DNA of 38,979 nucleotides, from positions 1 to 38,979 of the forward strand of contig DZAX01000020.1 of NCBI GenBank assembly GCA_022729705.1, in the 5' to 3' direction. A model generated the notes under the pieces. The model did no database searches and had not been told where the DNA came from. It saw only the letters and a program-made list of their open reading frames with translations. Position 1 is the stretch's first letter. Each line of letters starts with the position of its first letter. Shown one piece after another: positions 50 to 38,979 of this stretch. Made by a program: the position numbers and the translations under genes. This stretch comes from Helicobacter cetorum (GTDB lineage: Bacteria > Campylobacterota > Campylobacteria > Campylobacterales > UBA6016).

Positions 50-475
50 TTGTACGCTTCATTGGATACAAAGACCTATACGACAGCCAAAAAAGTACTG
101 CAAACGATAGAGGTGTATAGCGAGACTTACGGTCTCGGTGGCAAGATAGATGCTTACGATAGCACCAAAAAGCTCCTCACAGAGCGCAAAAAGAAGATAA
201 AGGTCATCTATGACGGTTATATCTATCAGCTCTATGCTCAATATCACTGCCTTACAGAGATGGACTACAAGGTCAAATCTATGAAGTTATACAGCCTAGA
301 TGACAACAAAAGCTATCCAATAGCCTTGCCGCATGACGACCCGCAAAGACAGATGGGTTTTGAACAGCTCATATATGAGTTAAAGACCTTTGATTTGAGC
401 ACCCCTTTTGTCGCCAATCCAAACAAATGCGCCCACTGCATCTATAGCCCGTTATGCGATGTTGCCGCATGTTGA
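50..475 (+). CDS. cas4: CRISPR-associated Cas4, N-terminally truncated
   Basis: Cas4 is a RecB-like Fe-S nuclease that helps select and trim PAM-containing prespacers for Cas1-Cas2. The 141 residues match the middle and end of type V-A Cas4: GGKIDAYD (nuclease Asp), then LLTERKKKIK (Glu/Lys of the active site), IYQLYAQY, and a C-terminal CAHCIYSPLC cluster that supplies three of the four Fe-S cysteines. The first part of the family, with the leading Cys and about 40-50 residues, is missing. The only usable start is TTG at 50, and an in-frame TGA lies at 35-37. It overlaps cas1 by 7 bases. Either the gene is broken just upstream or a frameshift joins it to sequence outside the window. The identity is secure; the functional state is doubtful. 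Confidence 0.85.
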   Translation: MYASLDTKTYTTAKKVLQTIEVYSETYGLGGKIDAYDSTKKLLTERKKKIKVIYDGYIYQLYAQYHCLTEMDYKVKSMKLYSLDDNKSYPIALPHDDPQRQMGFEQLIYELKTFDLSTPFVANPNKCAHCIYSPLCDVAAC

Positions 476-1443
476 GCCTGCCTGATTTCAAACACAAGCA
501 AATTATTATTGCGCTACTTAGTCACGGCGAGAAGCTTAGCTTCAAAAACGATAATATAGTCGTCACTGACATTGACGGCAAGATAAAATACCAATCCACC
601 TGCTACCGTCTTTTTGCACTTTTTATCGTTGGACACATGAGCATCACGACGGGGCTTTTGCAAAGAGCAAAAAAATTTGGTTTTAGTATCACATTTTTGA
701 CCTACGGGCTTAGCCCATATGGGAGTTGGCAATATCGTATTGAGGGCAATGTGCTTTTGCGCCAAAAGCAGTACGCTTATAATGGAACGGCTATCGCTCA
801 ACATATCGTAAAAAACAAAATTGCACAGCAAATCGCTTTTTTACAAAAACGACGAGAGAAATCCGCAAAACTAAAAGATGCGATACTAAAACTTCACGAA
901 TACAATGAGCGTATGCCCGATGAGACGCTATCCACTCAGGAGATATTGGGCTTGGAGGGCGTGTCTTCAAGGCTTTATTTTTCGCATATGTTTGATAATA
1001 TGGAGTGGAATGGGCGAACGCCTAGAACAAAGAAAGACGCTACAAATTTACTGCTAGATATAGGCTATATGCAACTGTTTCATCTTGTGGATGCAATGCT
1101 AAATCTCTACGGTTTTGATACATACAAAGGGGTTTATCACAAAGAGTTTTACCAGCGAAAATCATTAGTAGCGGATATAGTGGAGCCGTTTCGTCCGATT
1201 GTTGATTATCGCATACGCAAAGCTTACAATCTAGGGCAGATAAACATAAACGACTTTGATATTATCGACGGTCAATACCGCCTTTTTGGTAAAAACGCAA
1301 AGCCATACGTCACATGGCTTTTGGAGGCGATAATGGAACATAAAAACGAGATGTTTATATATATCCAACGCTACTACAGAGCTTTTATCCAAGACAAGCC
1401 GATTGAGGATTACCCAATTTTTAGCACGGAGGTGACAACATGA
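469..1443 (+). CDS. cas1: CRISPR-associated endonuclease Cas1 (type V-A)
   Basis: Cas1 is the integrase that, with Cas2, inserts new spacers at the leader end of the array. An upstream ATG at 454 also exists, but starting at 469 gives MLSLPDFKHKQI, the usual beta-strand opening of this subgroup, about 324 residues and a 7-base overlap with cas4. The metal-binding residues are visible: Glu in LEGVSSRLYF (about residue 163), His in GVYHKEF (about 224) and Asp/Glu in VADIVEPFRPIVD (about 236-239). Length is normal and no frameshift is seen. It is translationally coupled to cas2, whose ATG overlaps its stop by 4 bases. The order cas4-cas1-cas2-array is that of type V-A loci. Confidence 0.96.
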   Translation: MLSLPDFKHKQIIIALLSHGEKLSFKNDNIVVTDIDGKIKYQSTCYRLFALFIVGHMSITTGLLQRAKKFGFSITFLTYGLSPYGSWQYRIEGNVLLRQKQYAYNGTAIAQHIVKNKIAQQIAFLQKRREKSAKLKDAILKLHEYNERMPDETLSTQEILGLEGVSSRLYFSHMFDNMEWNGRTPRTKKDATNLLLDIGYMQLFHLVDAMLNLYGFDTYKGVYHKEFYQRKSLVADIVEPFRPIVDYRIRKAYNLGQININDFDIIDGQYRLFGKNAKPYVTWLLEAIMEHKNEMFIYIQRYYRAFIQDKPIEDYPIFSTEVTT

Positions 1444-1715
1444 TTATAGTCTCGTATGATATTAGCGATGACAAGTTACGGACACGGTTTGCAAAGTATC
1501 TATCAAAACACGGTTTTAGACTGCAATACTCGATGTTTCAAATCAAAAACAGCAAACGGATTTTATCGCTAGTCTCTTCTGATATAAAAAACAATTTTGA
1601 AAAACTATTTTCACAAACAGACAGCATAATAATATTGGATCTAAGCGAGCAGTGCAAGATAACAAGGTATGGCTATGCCAAAAACGACGAGTCGGATTTG
1701 ATAGTGATAGACTAA
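1440..1715 (+). CDS. cas2: CRISPR-associated Cas2
   Basis: Cas2 forms the central dimer of the Cas1-Cas2 integration complex. The 91-residue protein begins with the ferredoxin-like strand MIIVSYDIS carrying the conserved Asp at residue 7, followed by the KYLSKHGFRLQYSMFQ segment typical of the family. The ATG overlaps the cas1 stop (ATGA), so the two are co-translated. The leader and array follow directly downstream on the same strand. Complete, with no oddity. Confidence 0.96.
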   Translation: MIIVSYDISDDKLRTRFAKYLSKHGFRLQYSMFQIKNSKRILSLVSSDIKNNFEKLFSQTDSIIILDLSEQCKITRYGYAKNDESDLIVID

Positions 1716-1832
1716 ATTTTGCAAACCTCGGTCTTTATGAAAAAATAAGCCGATTTTTTGGCAAAAATAGCGTTTTTTTGTGCCAAAATAGGCTAAAATA
1801 CCGCCTATGGTAGCCAAAAAAGCAGTTTATCT
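1716..1832 (+). promoter_or_regulatory. CRISPR leader with long imperfect hairpin
   Basis: The AT-rich 117 bases between cas2 and the first repeat occupy the leader position. They contain an inverted repeat TTTTGGCA (1756-1763) / TGCCAAAA (1781-1788), extended inside by CAAAAA / TTTTTTG, so the whole can fold into one long hairpin. A TAAAAT box near 1793-1798, about 35 bases before the first repeat, could be the -10 of the array promoter. Whether the hairpin ends cas2 transcription or guides spacer integration cannot be told from sequence. Confidence 0.6.
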
Positions 1833-2820
1833 GTCTAAAGGCACCAATAAATTTCTACTGTTGTAGATCGGCGGGCTCCTTTGGGGTAAGTAAGAGTCTA
1901 AAGGCACCAATAAATTTCTACTGTTGTAGATCTGCTACCGGAGAAGCGGACATCATCTATGTCTAAAGGCACCAATAAATTTCTACTGTTGTAGATTGTT
2001 TTGTGAAGAGTGTAAAAACTATTGTCTAAAGGCACCAATAAATTTCTACTGTTGTAGATATACATCCTCTATTGTTATCTGTATGCCGTCTAAAGGCACC
2101 AATAAATTTCTACTGTTGTAGATTTGTCTACAACTGTATCTATTAATAATAAGTCTAAAGGCACCAATAAATTTCTACTGTTGTAGATACCTATTCACCA
2201 TCCCGTAAGATAGTCGTCTAAAGGCACCAATAAATTTCTACTGTTGTAGATCCAATGCCCCATTCCGTCCGACAATAAGTCTAAAGGCACCAATAAATTT
2301 CTACTGTTGTAGATGATAGCCTGATGTCGTTTCACTCGCTGGGGTCTAAAGGCACCAATAAATTTCTACTGTTGTAGATAGACTATCCGGGCTTATAATC
2401 ATTTTAAGTCTAAAGGCACCAATAAATTTCTACTGTTGTAGATACACCAATGCAAAAAGGGCGCCTTGATGTCTAAAGGCACCAATAAATTTCTACTGTT
2501 GTAGATTTTTTTTCAGCCTCGGTATTTGATAGAGTCTAAAGGCACCAATAAATTTCTACTGTTGTAGATCCCCAGCCTCGCTACTCTCCGCATTTGTCTA
2601 AAGGCACCAATAAATTTCTACTGTTGTAGATGCGTATTCTCTTATGCCTGGACACAAAGTCTAAAGGCACCAATAAATTTCTACTGTTGTAGATGGGTGA
2701 TGTGCCGATGACCATGCATGATGTCTAAAGGCACCAATAAATTTCTACTGTTGTAGATACGGTGACTGTGTGATAATCTTTGGAGTCTAAAGGCACCAAT
2801 AAATTTCTACTGTTGTAGAT
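1833..2820 (+). CRISPR. Type V-A CRISPR array, 16 repeats and 15 spacers
   Basis: Sixteen copies of a 36-base repeat were read at 1833, 1896, 1961, 2024, 2088, 2153, 2216, 2279, 2344, 2408, 2471, 2534, 2596, 2659, 2723 and 2785. All appear identical, including the last. The repeat opens with GTCTAAAGGCACCAAT and ends with AATTTCTACTGTTGTAGAT, the Cas12a handle with stem TCTAC/GTAGA around a TGTT loop. Spacers are 26-29 bases (27,29,27,28,29,27,27,29,28,27,27,26,27,28,26). The handle lies 5' of each spacer on the plus strand, so the array is transcribed with the cas genes. No degenerate terminal repeat marks the distal end. Confidence 0.99.
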
Positions 2821-4628: not shown

Positions 4629-6554
4629 TTAAATCTTTGGCGCTAGCCTTAACGCAGTTTCATCTCCTGCAATATTTCTAATTTTTAGCCTTTTTGGGGC
4701 TGTCTCAAAAGATATTGTGCCATCCCAAAACTCTTTTGTTTTCACGCCGTTTCTGATAACAAAACCATTTTTGTCTATCTTGATTTCATTGTCACTGTGC
4801 CACTGCCCACTTGCATTTTTGCAGTCTAGCCCGATAAGTTCTATCAGCTCCAAACCGTCATCAGATATGATGATAGGGCTATTTTTTCCGTTTAGTGTTC
4901 GTTTTTGATTGTAGTCGTCTATTTTTTGGTTAAGCCTATCGCTCACAAAAGAGGTGATGCGAATCGAATTTTCACATATTTCATACTCTACCTCATCGTT
5001 TATCACAACATCATCCAGTAGGACTTTGAGGTCTCTTAGCTCTATTTGTATATTTGCAGGAGCGTACTCTTTGATGAACTCATACACATCAGTTTCATCA
5101 CTGATGTCAACATAATACACAATGACTTTTTTGGTCTCGTCTGGCAAATCTGGCATAGCTTCATTGATTATGCGGTTCATCATGGGTGTGTCAAGGATCT
5201 TTGTACTATGGTCTAGCAGATTTGGGATATATACAGGCACCAGCCCTAGCTTGCTATCATGAATAGAGCCTTCCCAGAAGGCATCCAGTGCGTCTTCATT
5301 TCGCAAACCTACTATCATAGATTTCATCTTGTCCATCGTCTGGATAGGATTTCTAAATAGGCTCACACCGTCCTTGACATCAAGTATCGAGAAGCTGGCA
5401 CCATTTGCCACAAGCCTATCTCGTACTGTCTGGATGCTATTTATCCCGACATCAACATGGAAGAAGTTTCGCCCCAAATCATTTGCCACCTTTGCTGTGA
5501 CACCTGAACCACCAAAAAAGTCGGCTACAACCATGCCATCATTTGATGAAGCTTTGATAATTCGTTCCAATAGAGCTTCTGGTTTTTGAGTTGTGTAGCC
5601 TACATTGTCTTTTTCAGTAAATGCGTATGTTCCCACGCCGTAATCATTATTAAATACTTTTGCTGGTTCATCTTTGCCCATCCACACACTCCAAGCTGGT
5701 TGAGGCTTATTCTTACTGGCTTCCTGTATAGCTTCATCTTTTGTTAAGTTAGGATTTGTTGAAATATAGGTTTTTAAGCTATTTTTGCCACCGCTGCTTT
5801 CTTGCCTTCTTGTGTAGTACCATCCATCCTCATCTTTTTGCAATGACTTAACTACATATTCACCATAGCCTTTCCTTGCTGGCGGCATAAAAAATGAATC
5901 CTCTTTCTTGTAAACTAAAATTGTTTCATGAGCTTTTGGGTAATAATCACCAGCACCCATCAAGCCGCAAGCCCAAATAATTTCTGAAAACTCATATCCG
6001 ATAAAAACTTCATCCATGAGCACTTTTACATAATGAACAATATTCCAGTCTAAGTGCAGATAAATTGAAGCATTTGAATTCATTATACTCTTAATAGCCA
6101 TCAGATTTTCATACATCCAAGAGAGATAATCCTCTTTGTTCCAGATGTCACCATACATCTTTTCTTCAAATACTTTTAGCTCTTCCAAGTCCATCTGTGC
6201 TTCGGCTTCAGCGATTTTGGCGGCTAGGTTTGGATTTTTGCGGATATAAACTTTTTTGGCATAATCAGCGCCGCTAGCAAAAGGCGGGTCGATATAGACA
6301 AGGTCAACCATCACGCCTTGCTCTTTGAGATATGCGCAAGCAGATATACACTCGCCTCTGATGACCATATTTTGGCTATTCTCACCGACTTGTTCCATCT
6401 TCTCTACTTCATAGTACGGCATGCCTCTTTTGATGCGGTCATAGACTTTGTCACCGTCTCTATATCTAATAGCTCTTTTTGTGCGGACGAGATTGTCTAG
6501 TATGGCTTGACCAGCTACGGTGTCTGGATAGTATGGGATGAATTTTTTTGGCAT
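4629..6554 (-). CDS. mod: Type III restriction-modification methyltransferase (Mod)
   Basis: A 641-residue beta-class adenine-N6 DNA methyltransferase that also supplies target recognition for the type III enzyme. The catalytic motif IV, YIDPPFASGADY, is at about residue 88-98. The SAM-binding motif I, VADFFGGSG, comes later at about 343-351, the order that defines the beta class. The stretch between them, about 110-320, is where the target recognition domain sits. The start codon overlaps the res stop by one base (TAATG), so res and mod are one minus-strand operon with res first; many type III operons have mod first. No simple-sequence repeat that would make the gene phase-variable was seen. 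Length is normal. Confidence 0.92.
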   Translation of the reverse strand: MPKKFIPYYPDTVAGQAILDNLVRTKRAIRYRDGDKVYDRIKRGMPYYEVEKMEQVGENSQNMVIRGECISACAYLKEQGVMVDLVYIDPPFASGADYAKKVYIRKNPNLAAKIAEAEAQMDLEELKVFEEKMYGDIWNKEDYLSWMYENLMAIKSIMNSNASIYLHLDWNIVHYVKVLMDEVFIGYEFSEIIWACGLMGAGDYYPKAHETILVYKKEDSFFMPPARKGYGEYVVKSLQKDEDGWYYTRRQESSGGKNSLKTYISTNPNLTKDEAIQEASKNKPQPAWSVWMGKDEPAKVFNNDYGVGTYAFTEKDNVGYTTQKPEALLERIIKASSNDGMVVADFFGGSGVTAKVANDLGRNFFHVDVGINSIQTVRDRLVANGASFSILDVKDGVSLFRNPIQTMDKMKSMIVGLRNEDALDAFWEGSIHDSKLGLVPVYIPNLLDHSTKILDTPMMNRIINEAMPDLPDETKKVIVYYVDISDETDVYEFIKEYAPANIQIELRDLKVLLDDVVINDEVEYEICENSIRITSFVSDRLNQKIDDYNQKRTLNGKNSPIIISDDGLELIELIGLDCKNASGQWHSDNEIKIDKNGFVIRNGVKTKEFWDGTISFETAPKRLKIRNIAGDETALRLAPKI

Positions 6555-9439
6555 TAGCTTTTAGCCCCTTTGAAAAAGTCTATAATTTTTTGTTCTGCTT
6601 TTGCTAGAAACTCTTTGTCATCATCTTGTATATAGAGATAATCAAATCGCTTGTAGCCAAATTTGTCGTTGTTTAGCGGTATAAAGTGGTCTTTTGTAAA
6701 TTTCATTTTTTTGATAAAAACTTCTTGTGATGCGTAACCTTCGCCTTTTGTTTCTACTATGAGGATTTTTGCTATTTTTTCACTATCTCTTTTGATGACC
6801 AAAAAGTCAGGTGTATATTTACCGACTCGTTTCCAGCCTTTTGACGTTTTTTCATAACAGTTTATCTTGAATTCCGTCAAAGCCTTGTCGCCGTTGTAGT
6901 AAATCTCCAAAGCCTCATTTTTGAATATTTCTAGTGACATCACTTGGGTCAAAAAATGTTGTTCAAATCCACTTTGGGTGAAATCGTATGGTAGATAATG
7001 AAATGCTTTGTCTCTATTTTTTATAGCATCAGTGTGCCCATGCTGTTTTGCAAAATCACTAAAAGGCATTACAAAATTTGCCATACCCTGCGATGACAGT
7101 GTTTGTTTTAATAACTCGTATGCTTTTAGCATTTCATCTTGATTAACATCTGTAGATAGTCCACTGCTATCGAGTTCTAATATTTTTTCACATTCATCTT
7201 TAGTTGGATAGATTTTGTCATGTTCTAGTATTGGTTGCAACTTATCTATCTTTAGTAGCTCAACACTCTGAGGAATAATCTCTTCAATCATCTTGAGTGT
7301 TCTATCGGAGTGAAAAGCTAGGCGAACTTTTGATTTGATGGCTTCAATGTCAAAAACAGCATTAAAGTGCAATATGTCGTCATGCTCAACAGTGATAGCA
7401 TTGAATAGCTTTTCAAGTATTTCACTGTGCTTTTTTAACATTTGGCGTGTCACATCGCCAAAACTTTCTTTTGAAATATCAAAAAGCCATTTCTCAAACG
7501 AAGCCACTTCACCGAGAACAGTTTTTTCAAAATGAGTTGTGCCAATATCATTTGCATCAAGCGTTTTTGTGGTTATTTGAACAGTTTTTTCAAAATCTTG
7601 TTTTTGTATTTCGTTGATTTTTTTCTCTGGTTTTGTATTTTCCACGACAACAGTTGAAGACTCTATTTGCATTTTGTAGAAGTCTATTTTTGGTAGTTTT
7701 AAATGTTCAATCCTAGAAAATCTTTCGACTTGTTTTTCACCAGTTTTTGTTAGGTTGTTTATCTCGTTGATACTTGTGTGTTGTTCTTCCCTTAGTTGTT
7801 TATCTAGTATTTTTGCATTGTCATCATTTAGATAAATCAGTGCCGTTTCATCATCTTCACCATCCATTTGCCTAAGACATCTGCATGATGTTTGAAGTAT
7901 CATATTTGGTGGGCAGTCGCCTTTTTGAGAGAGTATCACACCCGTTAAGCTTTTGCAATCCCAGCCCTCTTTGCCTATTTGAACCAACAATATAATTTGT
8001 TTTTTTGACAATGGAGTATCGAGTGACAAAAATTCTGTTTCATTTTGTTTTGGGAGTTTGTATTTGGTATTACCCTTGTGATATTTGAGTATTTTTAATG
8101 CGTCTATGCCTGTTTTAAGCAGATGAGGATATATCTCTTCTTCTAATCTCTCAATGCTTCCACAGTAGATGACCGTTTTAGCACACGTACCGTTTGAATA
8201 TACCTTGTCTCCATAGGTGTCCAAAAAGTGCTTAACACCCTTGGAAACAATCTCTATAGGCTCTAATCCTCTAACCTGTTCAACTCTAGGTTTTTTGAGA
8301 AACTTTTGAATTGCCGTAGTGAGTGGATAGTAATAAACGGTATTGCTTATTTGTGTTGATTTTAGCTTGAGACTATCTGATATAGAGATAGATTCAGCAC
8401 TTGACAAATAGGGAGTACCAGAGAATCCAAGAACAGAATTTATAGTACCATTTGCACTCCATTTATTGACTACTTGACGCAGTTTAATATCATCTGTAGC
8501 GGCATGATGCACTTCATCTATGTATATCTGTAGATTTGGGATTTTGCCTATGATATTTCGTAACTCATTTGCCAGTCTATCTTTTTCGTCTTCTGTTTTT
8601 TCGATAACATTAAGTAAATTATCAATCTCCAAACGATCGAGAATGACTTTTTCTGCATTAACTATAAGAACCAAGCCCATTAAGCTATCAAAAGGCTGAT
8701 AGCTTGCAACCTTTTGAGCATTTGGATTTTGTGTACGATTACTTTTTTTGGCAGATTTTGCTTCATCAAGTATTTCAAAGCTAATCATTTTTTTTATGTT
8801 CAATGCGGCATTTTCTGGCAAAATCCAAGTCGGGTCAAAATTTAAAATACTCTTTAGACTTGGACCAATTGAGCTTTTGAGACCAGATGGAATCATCACA
8901 AGGAAGTTATGAGCAAAAACTTTGTTGTCAGGTTCATTAAGGGCAAAGTACAAGTCAAGATATATTAGTGACGCCATAAGATAAGTCTTGCCGGCTCCCA
9001 TTGGTAAGCTGAAAAGATAATCTGTATAGCTAATGTCATAAAAAAGTTTTTTGATAATTTGCAAAGCGTCAATATCGCCATGCTTGTCTTTTATATGTTG
9101 TTCAAGCTCTGGAAATAGTGTTTTGCCGTCGGGAAGTTTTTGTCTAGTAAGGTCAAATAAACCCTGCAAGACAGTATCTGCTCTTAGTTTTACTCTAAGT
9201 TCATGAGATATTTGCAAGGTATCAAGGTTTTCATTTTTAGCAAAAAAACCTTCTGATATTAGTTTCCATAGTGGTTTATTTTCGGCTTTTATCTTTAGAA
9301 AAAAATAAATTTCTATAGCTTCAACTTGTGAAGCACGCAAACAGTCTTTTTGTTTTATATAAGCAACAGTGTCTTTTATATTACATTCGATTGAGTGAAG
9401 CCAAGTATGCGATAAATTTTTTAAAACAGACCAAATCAT
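6554..9439 (-). CDS. res: Type III restriction endonuclease (Res helicase-nuclease)
   Basis: The 961-residue Res subunit uses ATP to signal along DNA between two unmethylated sites and then cuts. Superfamily 2 helicase motifs appear in order: Walker A PMGAGKTY (about 146-153), DEVHH box (about 308-312), GFSGTPYLS (motif III-like) and QTSCRCLRQ (motif VI). The C-terminal PD-(D/E)XK nuclease is visible as PDFLVIK (about 877) followed by the ETKG motif (about 896). Length agrees with EcoP1I/EcoP15I-type Res. It is first in the operon with mod. The upstream region is AT-rich, but no definite promoter could be placed. It appears fully intact, unlike neighbouring accessory genes. Confidence 0.92.
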   Translation of the reverse strand: MIWSVLKNLSHTWLHSIECNIKDTVAYIKQKDCLRASQVEAIEIYFFLKIKAENKPLWKLISEGFFAKNENLDTLQISHELRVKLRADTVLQGLFDLTRQKLPDGKTLFPELEQHIKDKHGDIDALQIIKKLFYDISYTDYLFSLPMGAGKTYLMASLIYLDLYFALNEPDNKVFAHNFLVMIPSGLKSSIGPSLKSILNFDPTWILPENAALNIKKMISFEILDEAKSAKKSNRTQNPNAQKVASYQPFDSLMGLVLIVNAEKVILDRLEIDNLLNVIEKTEDEKDRLANELRNIIGKIPNLQIYIDEVHHAATDDIKLRQVVNKWSANGTINSVLGFSGTPYLSSAESISISDSLKLKSTQISNTVYYYPLTTAIQKFLKKPRVEQVRGLEPIEIVSKGVKHFLDTYGDKVYSNGTCAKTVIYCGSIERLEEEIYPHLLKTGIDALKILKYHKGNTKYKLPKQNETEFLSLDTPLSKKQIILLVQIGKEGWDCKSLTGVILSQKGDCPPNMILQTSCRCLRQMDGEDDETALIYLNDDNAKILDKQLREEQHTSINEINNLTKTGEKQVERFSRIEHLKLPKIDFYKMQIESSTVVVENTKPEKKINEIQKQDFEKTVQITTKTLDANDIGTTHFEKTVLGEVASFEKWLFDISKESFGDVTRQMLKKHSEILEKLFNAITVEHDDILHFNAVFDIEAIKSKVRLAFHSDRTLKMIEEIIPQSVELLKIDKLQPILEHDKIYPTKDECEKILELDSSGLSTDVNQDEMLKAYELLKQTLSSQGMANFVMPFSDFAKQHGHTDAIKNRDKAFHYLPYDFTQSGFEQHFLTQVMSLEIFKNEALEIYYNGDKALTEFKINCYEKTSKGWKRVGKYTPDFLVIKRDSEKIAKILIVETKGEGYASQEVFIKKMKFTKDHFIPLNNDKFGYKRFDYLYIQDDDKEFLAKAEQKIIDFFKGAKS

Positions 9440-36312: not shown

Positions 36313-36677
36313 TAGCTACATCCTAAATTTTTATGAGCAAATTTTACCTGTTTAGCGTTTATAGTTTTTGATCCAAGCTATTTGCGAGTTTGTAGCTATT
36401 TTTTCCGGAGTGTTTTGCGACGTACGTCGCCTCGTCTCTAAAGGAAATAGGTGTCAGGCACTCTTTTATGCATTTTCTTATTTTTTTCTTAAATAAAGGG
36501 GAAATGCAAAGGGTGTCAGGCACTCTTTTATGACCCACAAGCTAATTAAAATTCACTAATGAAAACTAACCGCTCCGACACCTTTTAACCAATATGTTGT
36601 TACTTTAAAACTCTGTTTTTATTATAGCTGGTTTGCTTGTTGGTATCATACGAGACCCCTATATTTCCAATATTTTA
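36313..36677. repeat. Gene-free 365 bases with TGTCAGGCAC repeats
   Basis: Two direct copies of a 20-base unit (GTGTCAGGCACTCTTTTATG at 36451 and 36513) are separated by 42 bases. An inverted, degenerate third copy (AAAGGTGTCGGAGC read on the minus strand) lies at about 36572-36588. The unit is itself nearly palindromic (AAAGgGTG....CACtCTTT), and TGCATTTTC/GAAATGCA flanks the space between copies. No coding frame is seen. It resembles the short repeats found beside REP-associated transposases; none is present here. Confidence 0.6.
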
Positions 36678-36938
36678 CTATGCCGAAACCTGCTGAACGG
36701 AAATCCCTTGTAAAAATCCCCTAACGCTCAAATCTTCATCTATACTATCCCAATGCACACCCTCGCCGTCGCCTAGTATCTCAAAATCGTTGCGCTGTGT
36801 CGGTGTAGCGCGCAGTAGTTTCGGAAACCAAGAAAGCGGTAGATGAAGCGCTCTGCCGTCTTTTAGCGATACGATTAGCTCATCTTCAGTGCATTGAATC
36901 TCGCTTGCTAGCGGATTATTTACTGCCAAAGTATTCAT
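36678..36938 (-). CDS. DUF2442 domain protein
   Basis: An 86-residue intact DUF2442 protein (VSLKDGRALHLPLSWFPKLL at about 30-49, then GEGVHWDSIDEDLSVRGFLQ at about 58-77). It overlaps the upstream DUF4160 gene by 23 bases and is certainly co-translated with it. The fold is small and its role is not established; the pairing suggests a two-component conflict module. The homologue at 10060 is half this length. Confidence 0.85.
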   Translation of the reverse strand: MNTLAVNNPLASEIQCTEDELIVSLKDGRALHLPLSWFPKLLRATPTQRNDFEILGDGEGVHWDSIDEDLSVRGFLQGISVQQVSA

Positions 36939-37155
36939 TCCAAGCCCCCATAAATTGTTTTTCGTGTTTTTGTACTAGTTTTTCAAGCTCGTTTAGTTCA
37001 TGTGCTTTGAAGTTTGTGAAACTTGCTAGCACTATTTCGCCAAGCCAAAATTTTGCAAGTTTTTTGCCGTCTTGCACATGAATATGCGGAGGTTCGCCAA
37101 GTTCATTGCTAAAAAAGAAAAACCTAAAAGCTCCAATTTTCAAAACGGTAGGCAT
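36916..37155 (-). CDS. DUF4160 domain protein
   Basis: A 79-residue DUF4160 protein. MPTVLKIGAFRFFFFSNELG then EPPHIHVQDGKKLAKFWLG carries the PPHIHV signature; the second half (AHELNELEKLVQKHEKQFMG) is helical. The favoured start is ATG 37155; TTG just before it is less likely. It is first in the two-gene operon with DUF2442. The fs-broken copy at 9920 keeps the same gene order. Confidence 0.85.
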   Translation of the reverse strand: MPTVLKIGAFRFFFFSNELGEPPHIHVQDGKKLAKFWLGEIVLASFTNFKAHELNELEKLVQKHEKQFMGAWNEYFGSK

Positions 37156-37168
37156 CAAAAACTTTAAT

Positions 37169-37516
37169 CTAAAAATTTAAATCTATTCTATTAAAAGAGT
37201 TATAAGTTTTGACTTTTGACGCCTCGTTTTCAGTCATGCAAGCCTCAAAATAGCTTTGTGCCTCTATTAAAAAAGCGTTACTAAGGCCATCCTCTCCATA
37301 TGAGCCAAATCTTCATTTTTGACTTATAACCGCATAGTTTCCGCTAGCCACAGCGATAAGAGAGTCGCAATCGTCAAATAGCTTTATCTCTACACACAAA
37401 ACCAAGATGTTGAAGATGAAACTCTTTTATCAAAAGCTCAGTTTCGGCATATCCGCCGCTAATATGCCTTAGCGTTGCGCCAACGTGTTCAAAAATGGGA
37501 ATTTGATATTTTGCAT
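37169..37516 (-). pseudogene. Unrecognised gene broken by several frameshifts
   Basis: On the minus strand, successive frames join into one protein-like text of about 115 codons: MQNIKFPF, EHVGATLRHISGGYAETELL...LQHLGF, CVEIKLFDDCDSLIAVASGN, NEDLAHMERMALVTL, then EAQSYFEACMTENEASKVKT...DLNF. At least three single-base shifts, mostly at A or T runs, break it, while the total length stays a multiple of three. I do not recognise the family. It lies between the DUF4160 gene and the TOPRIM gene and may be a lost third member of either group. Confidence 0.5.
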
Positions 37517-37530
37517 TGTTCGTTTTCTTT

Positions 37531-38181
37531 TTATGAAAATAGTCTTAGGAACTCTTTTAACTCGCTCACAAGAGGGTTTTCAAAATCCCAAATATCTTTT
37601 TTTAGGCTCTTTTCGCCTTTGCAGTTTTCGTCCGCCTTGCTCTCGTTTTCTTTGCAGTTGTCGTATCTTTGGTATATGTCTACCCAAAATTTATCAAAGG
37701 TCTTATCTTTTACTTTTTTGTCGTTTTCTTGTAAGCATTTGCGCCATGCTTCTAGGCAATCGGCGTATGTGGAGTCTTTTGATTTTATCTTTTTGAGAAG
37801 CGTTTCAAGCTCGCCGTTGCCATTGACGTTCATGATGTAGCAGGCAAACTTAATATCAAGTTTATCGCTTTTTTTCACTTGATTTACGCCGTCAAGTTTT
37901 AGATTATCGTCAAACTTTTCTAGGGCTCTGTTTATAAGTTCGACGCGCTTTTGTACACCCTCGTTATCAGCGTCTATAATAATCCCTATTTTTTGGTACT
38001 TTTCAAATTTAATCTCGTTTAGACACTCAAAAAGTTTTTTCTCGGATAACCCATTTAAGCATTCAAAATCGTCTATTTGACATATGGGAGGGTTGATTTT
38101 TGGCGTAATATTTAAAAAGGCGCTTAAGCCCTCTATAAAATACTGGTCATTATGGCTCTCGACTATAATAAGACTACTCAC
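37531..38181 (-). CDS. DUF3226 TOPRIM-like protein, partner of the AAA15 ATPase
   Basis: A 216-residue protein. LIIVESHNDQYFIEGL has the TOPRIM Glu (residue 8) and KIGIIIDADNEGVQKR the DxD pair (70, 72), the metal site of TOPRIM nucleases and primases. The rest (about 100-216) is helical and charged. Its start overlaps the ATPase stop by 8 bases. ATPase-TOPRIM gene pairs of this form (PARIS AriA-AriB, AbiL, OLD-like) are known anti-phage systems; membership here is inferred from architecture, since those use DUF4435 or other TOPRIM types. Confidence 0.75.
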   Translation of the reverse strand: MSSLIIVESHNDQYFIEGLSAFLNITPKINPPICQIDDFECLNGLSEKKLFECLNEIKFEKYQKIGIIIDADNEGVQKRVELINRALEKFDDNLKLDGVNQVKKSDKLDIKFACYIMNVNGNGELETLLKKIKSKDSTYADCLEAWRKCLQENDKKVKDKTFDKFWVDIYQRYDNCKENESKADENCKGEKSLKKDIWDFENPLVSELKEFLRLFS

Positions 38182-38880
38182 CCCTAAACTCTCCCGAATG
38201 CGAAAGCGAATAAGCTAGCTGTTCGCTGTCTCTTGGTTTGACTTTTATCGAATTGTCTTTTGGGTTTCTGTAAAACTCAAGATATACACCCTCGTCATCT
38301 GTATTTGCCGCATTGAAAGCCTCTATACACTCTCTTGAATGCGTCGTGGCAAATACTTGACAATTAGTCTCTTTGGATATGTCAAAAATCAGTTTCCAGA
38401 TATTTTGTAGCTGTGTATAGTGAATGCCGTTGTCTATCTCGTCGATAAAAAGCTGACCGTCTTCGCAAGCGTGAAGCATACAGATGATGGAGATATAATG
38501 CTTTAGTCCGTCGCCAAACTCTGTTAGGTCTATGTATTTACCGTTAAATTTGCATTGCGGTTTATCACGTCCTATTACTTTGAATGATTCTATTGTTGAG
38601 TCGAATTTTTGTATTAGGGCGTTTAGTTCTTGTTCTTTATCTTTTGTTTGGATTGTTTCATATGTTTTTATAAGATGATTATTTGATAATCCAAAGTTAT
38701 CGATAAAGCCTATATTTGACGCAATAAACTTAATAGAAAAGTTATTTGCATTGACTATTTTTTCTTCTCCGTTGGCGACAAAAATATACTCTTTTATGCC
38801 ATCCTTCTGGCTTAGTTGAAATTTAATATCTCTTTTGCTGGAAAAACTATGATAAATAGACGTCGCTTCTAAAAAAAAAT
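38174..38880 (-). pseudogene. AAA15/OLD-like ATPase, 5' part cut off by an IS66 element
   Basis: Coding on the minus strand shows the C-terminal half of an AAA15-type ATPase: FIASNIGFIDNFGL, the signature-like LTEFGDGLKHYISIICMLHA, Walker B LFIDEIDNGIHY and the QVFATTHSRECIEAF switch region. The Walker A half is missing. The frame runs on to 38917 with an ATG, but bases from 38881 belong to the IS, so that start is artificial. The true 5' half should lie beyond the IS, outside the window. With its TOPRIM partner it forms a probable, now disabled, defence module. Confidence 0.75.
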
Positions 38881-38979
38881 GTAACCATTCACCACCCCAA
38901 AACAACAAAGGAACCAAAGTTGCTTAATAAACACTATTATGACAGAACAAGAAGCAAGAGATATTTACCATCAGGGTGA
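38881..38979 (+). mobile_element. Left end of an IS66-family insertion sequence
   Basis: The sequence starting GTAACCATTCACCACCCC at 38881 begins with GTAA, as IS66 ends do. It abuts a run of nine A bases in the ATPase gene, and a transposase-like start follows 58 bases in. The right end and the expected 8-base target duplication are outside the window. Confidence 0.6.
38939..38979 (+). CDS. Start of IS66-family transposase (partial)
   Basis: ATG 38939 opens MTEQEARDIYHQG, and the last two bases (GA) are likely the start of a Glu codon. This matches the usual opening of IS66 TnpC transposases in this phylum (MTE.EAR.IY.QGEE...). The reading continues past the window edge, so the apparent TGA at 38977-38979 is out of frame. 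No accessory tnpA/tnpB genes precede it. Confidence 0.55.
   Translation, partial: MTEQEARDIYHQG

What the first reader, a model, noticed from the sequence alone, without database searches (positions are those of the whole stretch)
37531..38880. AAA15 ATPase plus DUF3226 TOPRIM pair: candidate PARIS/AbiL-like defence module
Two overlapping genes encode an OLD-like ATPase (Walker B LFIDEIDNG, THSRE switch) and a protein with a TOPRIM metal site (Glu8; Asp70, Asp72). Known anti-phage systems PARIS (AAA15 + DUF4435) and AbiL share this build but use other TOPRIM types. If it is a defence system, this is a variant with DUF3226. Its place beside repeats, an unknown broken gene and an IS fits a defence island.
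Basis: partly seen in the sequence, partly recalled or inferred. Interest (0 to 1): 0.72.

Follow-up and report, generated by a model that had tools for sequence, protein, structure and literature searches.

The report
Broken ATPase–nuclease phage-defence gene pair
Two overlapping genes encode an OLD-type ATPase and a TOPRIM nuclease of the AbiL/PDC-M38 phage-defence type; in this copy the ATPase is cut in two by an insertion sequence, but relatives, including tandem arrays and minimal plasmids, show that the pair is a widespread, mobile, probably abortive-infection module.

Summary
Window 37531-38181 (-) is an intact DUF3226 protein (PF11536, E 5e-23). 38174-38880 (-) is the C-terminal part of an OLD/AAA15 ATPase. 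The ATPase is broken: an insertion sequence enters at 38881 with an 8-bp target duplication, and its Walker-A half lies on contig C61. Three other pairs exist in the genome, none visibly interrupted. In relatives, 53 of 56 DUF3226 ORFs directly follow such an ATPase; the other three are cut or broken. The nuclease keeps the OLD-type two-metal residues (E8, D12, D70, D72, E126, K164). The pair is already catalogued: PADLOC calls it PDC-M38, and its ATPase fits AbiLi best. PARIS membership fails: no AriB/DUF4435 match. Most copies are not in defence islands but inside housekeeping operons (U32|purE, beside hisA, after ccoS, in pgl); at U32|purE sister genomes are empty. Unexpected: tandem arrays of four or more pairs with conserved ATPase ends and very variable middles, and about 140 mostly Klebsiella plasmids, many of 4.2 kb, carrying the pair. 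New member of a known kind; defence function inferred, not tested.

The parts
37531..38181 (-). DUF3226 TOPRIM protein, 216 aa, GTG start, intact; predicted nuclease effector. Predicted catalytic residues E8, D12, D70, D72, E126, K164.
   Evidence: Pfam PF11536 E 5.3e-23; residues conserved in 46-48 of 48 full relatives; same set as the class 2 OLD two-metal site (PMC6755086); PADLOC PDC-M38B E 1.9e-10
38174..38880 (-). C-terminal part of OLD-type (AAA15) ATPase; Walker B and H-loop (THSRE) present, Walker A and about 80 N-terminal residues missing; overlaps the DUF3226 gene by 8 bp
   Evidence: PADLOC AbiLi E 4e-33, PDC-M38A E 8e-32; alignment with intact relatives; N-terminal half on contig C61
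38873..38880 (.). 8-bp target duplication AAAAAAAT, window-side copy (other copy at C61:107-114)
38881..38979 (+). End of an insertion sequence (TIR GTAACCATTCACCACC..., 18 of 20 positions match the other end) running into the contig end; interrupts the ATPase gene
   Evidence: nine further matches to this stretch in the genome; TIRs and target duplication

Best explanation
The pair is a two-gene immune module of the AbiL/PDC-M38 type. An OLD-family ABC ATPase acts as sensor and gate, probably through its variable middle segment. When a phage trigger arrives, it switches on or releases a DUF3226 TOPRIM nuclease. The nuclease uses a two-metal active site (E8, D12, D70, D72, E126, helped by K164) to cut a nucleic acid the cell needs, most likely RNA such as tRNA as in PARIS, less likely DNA as in OLD/Gabija, so that infection aborts. 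In this window the module is disabled: an insertion sequence with an 8-bp target duplication splits the ATPase between its Walker A and Walker B halves. Shown here: the two proteins and their motifs, near-universal pairing and overlap, residue conservation, IS disruption, presence/absence between close genomes, carriage on plasmids. Inferred: nuclease activity, the substrate, phage sensing, abortive infection.
For: Pairing: 53 of 56 DUF3226 ORFs directly follow an ATPase, 45 of 53 overlapping; the three exceptions are cut by contig ends or broken. Coevolution: ATPase and TOPRIM distances correlate, r 0.68, 2000 shuffles reach at most 0.15. Active site: E8 48/48, D12 46/48, D71 48/48, D73 47/48, E127 46/48 (others D), K165 47/48 (C58 numbering), matching BpOLD E400, E404, D455, D457, E508, K562 (PMC6755086). 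ATPase: Walker A G38/K39, Walker B D276/E277 and H310 in 48/48; Foldseek finds Rad50/SMC heads, retron ATPases and the AriA-AriB complex at E about 1e-6. Defence profiles: AbiLi, PDC-M38A/B. Accessory behaviour: 42 of 399 Campylobacterales genomes above cut-off; empty U32|purE site in both sister genomes; 144 plasmid records, mostly Klebsiella, many of them 4167-bp plasmids. Variable middle of the ATPase, 16% median identity against 38% and 30% in the ends. Literature: AAA-neutralised TOPRIM_OLD toxins from C. algidicarnis and S. agalactiae, and AbiL as abortive infection (PMC10440598); F. nucleatum AbiLii toxic in E. coli (PMC3985639); AriB two-metal tRNase (PMC12409363).
Against: No phage test of any DUF3226 pair was found; the term DUF3226 is in no held paper. 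The TOPRIM assignment by sequence is below Pfam's cut-off, and the Foldseek matches of the AlphaFold model are weak (best E 0.014, retron Eco2; model pLDDT 75). Most neighbours are housekeeping genes, unlike typical defence islands. An OLD-family protein of archaea works in the cell cycle, not defence (PMC12796447). No IMG/VR contig was found to carry it. F. nucleatum AbiLi did not neutralise its AbiLii in E. coli (PMC3985639). In the window an intact nuclease gene survives without an intact ATPase, so the nuclease is either silent or not toxic by itself.
Confidence: 0.72

Rival explanations
1. A toxin-antitoxin or addiction module with no special role against phages: the TOPRIM protein is a toxin, the ATPase its neutraliser, and the pair persists by addiction, for example on small plasmids.
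For: AAA proteins neutralise TOPRIM_OLD toxins in E. coli (PMC10440598); plasmids with little else besides replication genes; overlapping two-gene build.
Against: Here the toxin gene is intact while the ATPase is IS-split, which a strong constitutive toxin would hardly allow; a strongly variable middle in the ATPase suggests a sensor; AbiL, the closest tested relative, is reported as phage abortive infection.
Confidence: 0.15
2. A DNA repair or nucleic-acid maintenance ATPase-nuclease (as for the archaeal OLD protein Cran1) that rides in housekeeping operons for expression.
For: Housekeeping neighbours, recurrent sites at U32|purE and beside hisA; OLD-family ATPase with a cell-cycle role (PMC12796447).
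Against: Patchy: above cut-off in about 1 in 10 genomes, absent in both sister genomes, four divergent copies in one genome, sometimes broken (L059, L066, window), plasmid-borne.
Confidence: 0.08
3. A guard of restriction systems, PARIS-like: it senses anti-restriction proteins and backs up an R-M system. This is a special case of the defence reading, so its confidence overlaps with the best explanation.
For: In L067 the pair follows type III res-mod directly, 9 bp behind mod, before lpxB; L074 has a type III res gene with the pair 13 bp behind the next gene, and L070 has the same gene sizes; the window's own contig has type III-like R-M genes at 4629-8998. PARIS senses Ocr and T5 proteins (PMC12409363).
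Against: Only a minority of pairs lie by R-M genes; the window pair is some 30 kb from the R-M genes.
Confidence: 0.2

Closest known systems
PADLOC PDC-M38 (PDC-M38A ATPase + PDC-M38B), phage-defence candidate, PADLOC-DB 2.0
   Same: Same two proteins in the same order; both window proteins hit (8e-32 and 1.9e-10); the C19 pair of this genome hits at 2.8e-274 and 4.4e-70.
   Different: Window nuclease matches PDC-M38B only over residues 2-150; ATPase IS-split here; the models miss some relatives (C38 and L085 nucleases no hit).
AbiL (AbiLi + AbiLii), Lactococcus abortive infection
   Same: The ATPase's best PADLOC model is AbiLi (window 4e-33, intact C58 4.7e-52); AbiLii models hit DUF3226 relatives L077 (3e-19), L082 (1.3e-12), L067 (2e-10).
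   Different: AbiLii is described as an RloB-type TOPRIM (PMC10440598); the window and C58 nucleases do not hit AbiLii models.
PARIS (AriA + AriB)
   Same: Separate OLD-ABC ATPase and TOPRIM genes; the ATPase has weaker AriA hits (1.2e-14 window, 4.5e-22 C58).
   Different: Nuclease is DUF3226, no AriB or DUF4435 hit.
OLD class 2 nucleases (BpOLD, GajA)
   Same: Same predicted two-metal residue set.
   Different: ATPase and TOPRIM are separate genes here; no UvrD-type helicase beside the window pair.

Membership tests
PDC-M38 | PDC-M38A ATPase | tested here: met
   E 8.3e-32 window, 1.2e-49 C58
PDC-M38 | PDC-M38B adjacent | tested here: met
   E 1.9e-10, overlaps the ATPase by 8 bp
PDC-M38 | Both genes intact | tested here: not met
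   ATPase split by an IS at 38881; C58 and two other pairs show no interruption. So: a disabled member
AbiL | AbiLi ATPase | tested here: met
   best PADLOC hit, E 4e-33
AbiL | AbiLii nuclease | tested here: inconclusive
   window and C58 proteins: no hit; other DUF3226 proteins hit AbiLii
AbiL | Abortive infection phenotype | not testable with these tools
   needs phage assay
PARIS | AriA ATPase | tested here: inconclusive
   hit at 1.2e-14, far weaker than AbiLi and PDC-M38A
PARIS | AriB (DUF4435) nuclease | tested here: not met
   no AriB or DUF4435 match at E up to 1
OLD/TOPRIM two-metal nuclease | E, +4 acidic, DxD, E, K active site | tested here: met
   46-48 of 48 relatives and the window protein
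OLD/TOPRIM two-metal nuclease | TOPRIM fold | tested here: inconclusive
   Pfam Toprim E 8.6e-4 below cut-off; Foldseek best hit retron Eco2 at E 0.014
OLD/TOPRIM two-metal nuclease | Nuclease activity | not testable with these tools
   needs biochemistry

The most novel reading that the evidence does not exclude
DUF3226-ATPase pairs form recombining multi-sensor arrays. In some Campylobacterales, complete pairs stand head to tail (four pairs plus the start of a fifth ATPase at a contig end in L085, four in L087, two in L091 and L073). Their ATPases have similar ends and unlike middles; L085 pairs 2 and 4 carry 79% identical nucleases but ATPase middles only 21% identical. This would be a bank of different phage sensors wired to similar killers, embedded in housekeeping operons that supply expression.
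Probability: 0.3. Interest if true: 0.72.

Novelty: new member of a known kind. Interest (0 to 1): 0.45.

Why it matters
The pair is a catalogued candidate for which no experimental test was found. The data here make it testable: uninterrupted copies in the same genome, small plasmids that carry a natural version, a predicted active site, and arrays with unlike sensor segments. They also link DUF3226 with AbiLii, and suggest that defence searches keyed to defence islands will miss modules that sit inside housekeeping operons.

Tried and rejected
PARIS membership: rejected, no AriB/DUF4435. Defence-island context: rejected as a general rule; among 134 nearest neighbours 148 Pfam families, mostly housekeeping, PADLOC hits few and scattered against a far-gene control; not tested statistically, and only the first 25 families are shown. 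Repeats as part of the system: rejected, they are REP elements with a RAYT-like transposase on C17. Phage or virus carriage: none in IMG/VR; two GenBank 'phage' records look like bacterial contigs (glyQ/glyS beside the pair). Solved-structure relatives by sequence: none convincing. Plasmid searches with the L067/L077 nucleases: no match. Papers on DUF3226 or PDC-M38: none held. The 2020 classification of ABC ATPases and conflict systems by Aravind and colleagues is not held, so a prior description of DUF3226 dyads there cannot be excluded. A second, degraded stretch (37159-37530) was read in all frames and not identified.

Full report
What is there. The window is the whole of contig C55 of a 2.19-Mb genome in 75 contigs. 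Its order is inferred to be Campylobacterales from related loci. At 37531-38181 (-) lies a complete 216-aa DUF3226 protein (E 5.3e-23). Overlapping it by 8 bp, 38174-38880 (-) encodes the C-terminal part of an AAA15/OLD ATPase.

The ATPase is broken. An insertion sequence begins at 38881. This stretch has nine further matches in the genome. The eight bases before it, AAAAAAAT, are repeated after the other IS end at C61:107-114, and the TIRs agree in 18 of 20 positions. C61 carries the N-terminal half, with GGKNNIGKT, in a compatible frame. The link between the two contigs is an inference from the target duplication, the frame and homology. On C61 the ATPase start overlaps the reading frame that ends ccoS. 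The nuclease gene is intact.

The family. The genome holds four pairs: C55 (broken), C58 (364 + 228 aa, nuclease 53% identical to the window's), C19 (718 + 295 aa, inside a pgl glycosylation operon just before pglB), and C38 (318 + 207 aa, between a U32 peptidase and purE). Gene names such as pgl, ccoS, hisA and purE are my readings of the translations, apart from those covered by Pfam. Among 399 Campylobacterales genomes 42 have DUF3226 above cut-off. In fetched loci 53 of 56 DUF3226 ORFs follow an ATPase directly; the other three are at contig ends or broken. Distances in the two proteins correlate (r 0.68).

Mechanism. In 48 full pairs the nuclease keeps E8, D12, D71, D73, E127 and K165. 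This matches the residues shown to matter in BpOLD: E400, E404, D455, D457, E508 and K562 (PMC6755086). The match of residues is by order and spacing in the sequence, not by superposed structures. The ATPase keeps Walker A, Walker B and the H-loop in all 48, while its middle (residues 70-216) has 16% median identity against 38% and 30% in the flanking parts. A sensor segment between conserved ATPase lobes is the simplest reading. The AlphaFold model of the nuclease is middling (pLDDT 75) and its Foldseek matches weak: retron Eco2 at 0.014, a chain of the PARIS complex at 0.11 (chain identity not checked). The ATPase model finds Rad50/SMC heads, retron ATPases and the AriA-AriB complex. Related TOPRIM partners are toxic and neutralised by their AAA partner in E. 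coli (PMC10440598), AbiLii of F. nucleatum is toxic (PMC3985639), and AriB is a tRNase (PMC12409363). A gated suicidal nuclease is therefore most likely; the substrate is open.

Relation to known systems. PADLOC already lists the pair as PDC-M38; the ATPase's best model is AbiLi. Three DUF3226 proteins (L067, L077, L082) also match AbiLii, so DUF3226 and AbiLii overlap as families. PARIS is not met, because AriB/DUF4435 is absent.

Context. Neighbours are mostly housekeeping genes: U32|purE, hisA, ccoS, pgl. At U32|purE both sister genomes are empty, the two genes lying within 7 bp of each other, whereas two genomes of another family carry a homologous pair there, and the three nucleases form one clade. 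Five loci from four families carry a pair or array directly beside hisA. In L067 the pair directly follows a type III res-mod operon; L074 and L070 look alike.

Plasmids. 144 plasmid records, 138 of them Klebsiella, hold a close DUF3226. In the 4167-bp ColRNAI plasmid read here, the pair makes up two of four listed genes, beside an HTH protein and Rop. In E. coli it occurs in 9 of 5426 genomes, always on plasmids.

Arrays. L085 has four pairs in a row and the start of a fifth ATPase at the contig end; L087 has four; L091 and L073 two each. In L085 the 200-nt stretches at the starts of ATPase copies 3 to 5 are 96% identical to the reference copy, while ATPase middles within arrays are 12-42% identical. 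I found no report of such arrays in the papers read; the held library is partial.

Verdict. A real, IS-disabled member of a known candidate kind. Defence is likely but untested. The arrays, the minimal plasmids and the operon sites are what deserve follow-up.

Noticed in passing
L085:4178-10581, L087:6515-12536, L091:5800-8904, L073:8311-11451: Tandem arrays of two to four or more complete ATPase + DUF3226 pairs with alike ends and unlike middles of the ATPases.
   Followed up: partly
L084, L091, L093, L096, L073 (hisA side); L026, L126, L127 (U32|purE): Recurrent insertion sites of the pair inside housekeeping operons: beside hisA in five loci, between U32 peptidase and purE in three genomes of two families.
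   Followed up: partly
L130 (NZ_CP076014.1) and related records: About 140 plasmid records, mostly Klebsiella and many of 4167 bp, that carry the ATPase + DUF3226 pair with little besides replication genes.
   Followed up: partly
window 36450-36470 and 36512-36532; L146:107-8042: REP-like repeat GGTGTCAGGCACTCTTTTATG, 47 copies in the genome (up to one mismatch), most in one orientation and many on C17, with a RAYT-like transposase ORF at L146:7113-7856.
   Followed up: partly
window 454-2820: Cas1 (PREFRAN subtype), Cas2 and a CRISPR array of at least 16 repeats GTCTAAAGGCACCAATAAATTTCTACTGTTGTAGAT, which looks like type V-A (Cas12a).
   Followed up: partly
window 4629-8998: Type III-like methyltransferase (641 aa) and a large adjacent ORF (814 aa or more), a likely R-M system.
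   Followed up: partly
L104:4922-6834 (G000:C58): A Septu-like PtuA + PtuB pair elsewhere in this genome (PtuA E 1e-134, PtuB E 3e-69).
   Followed up: partly
window 36678-37158 and 37159-37530: DUF4160 + DUF2442 pair, and beside it a stretch without an intact gene, perhaps a degraded one.
   Followed up: no
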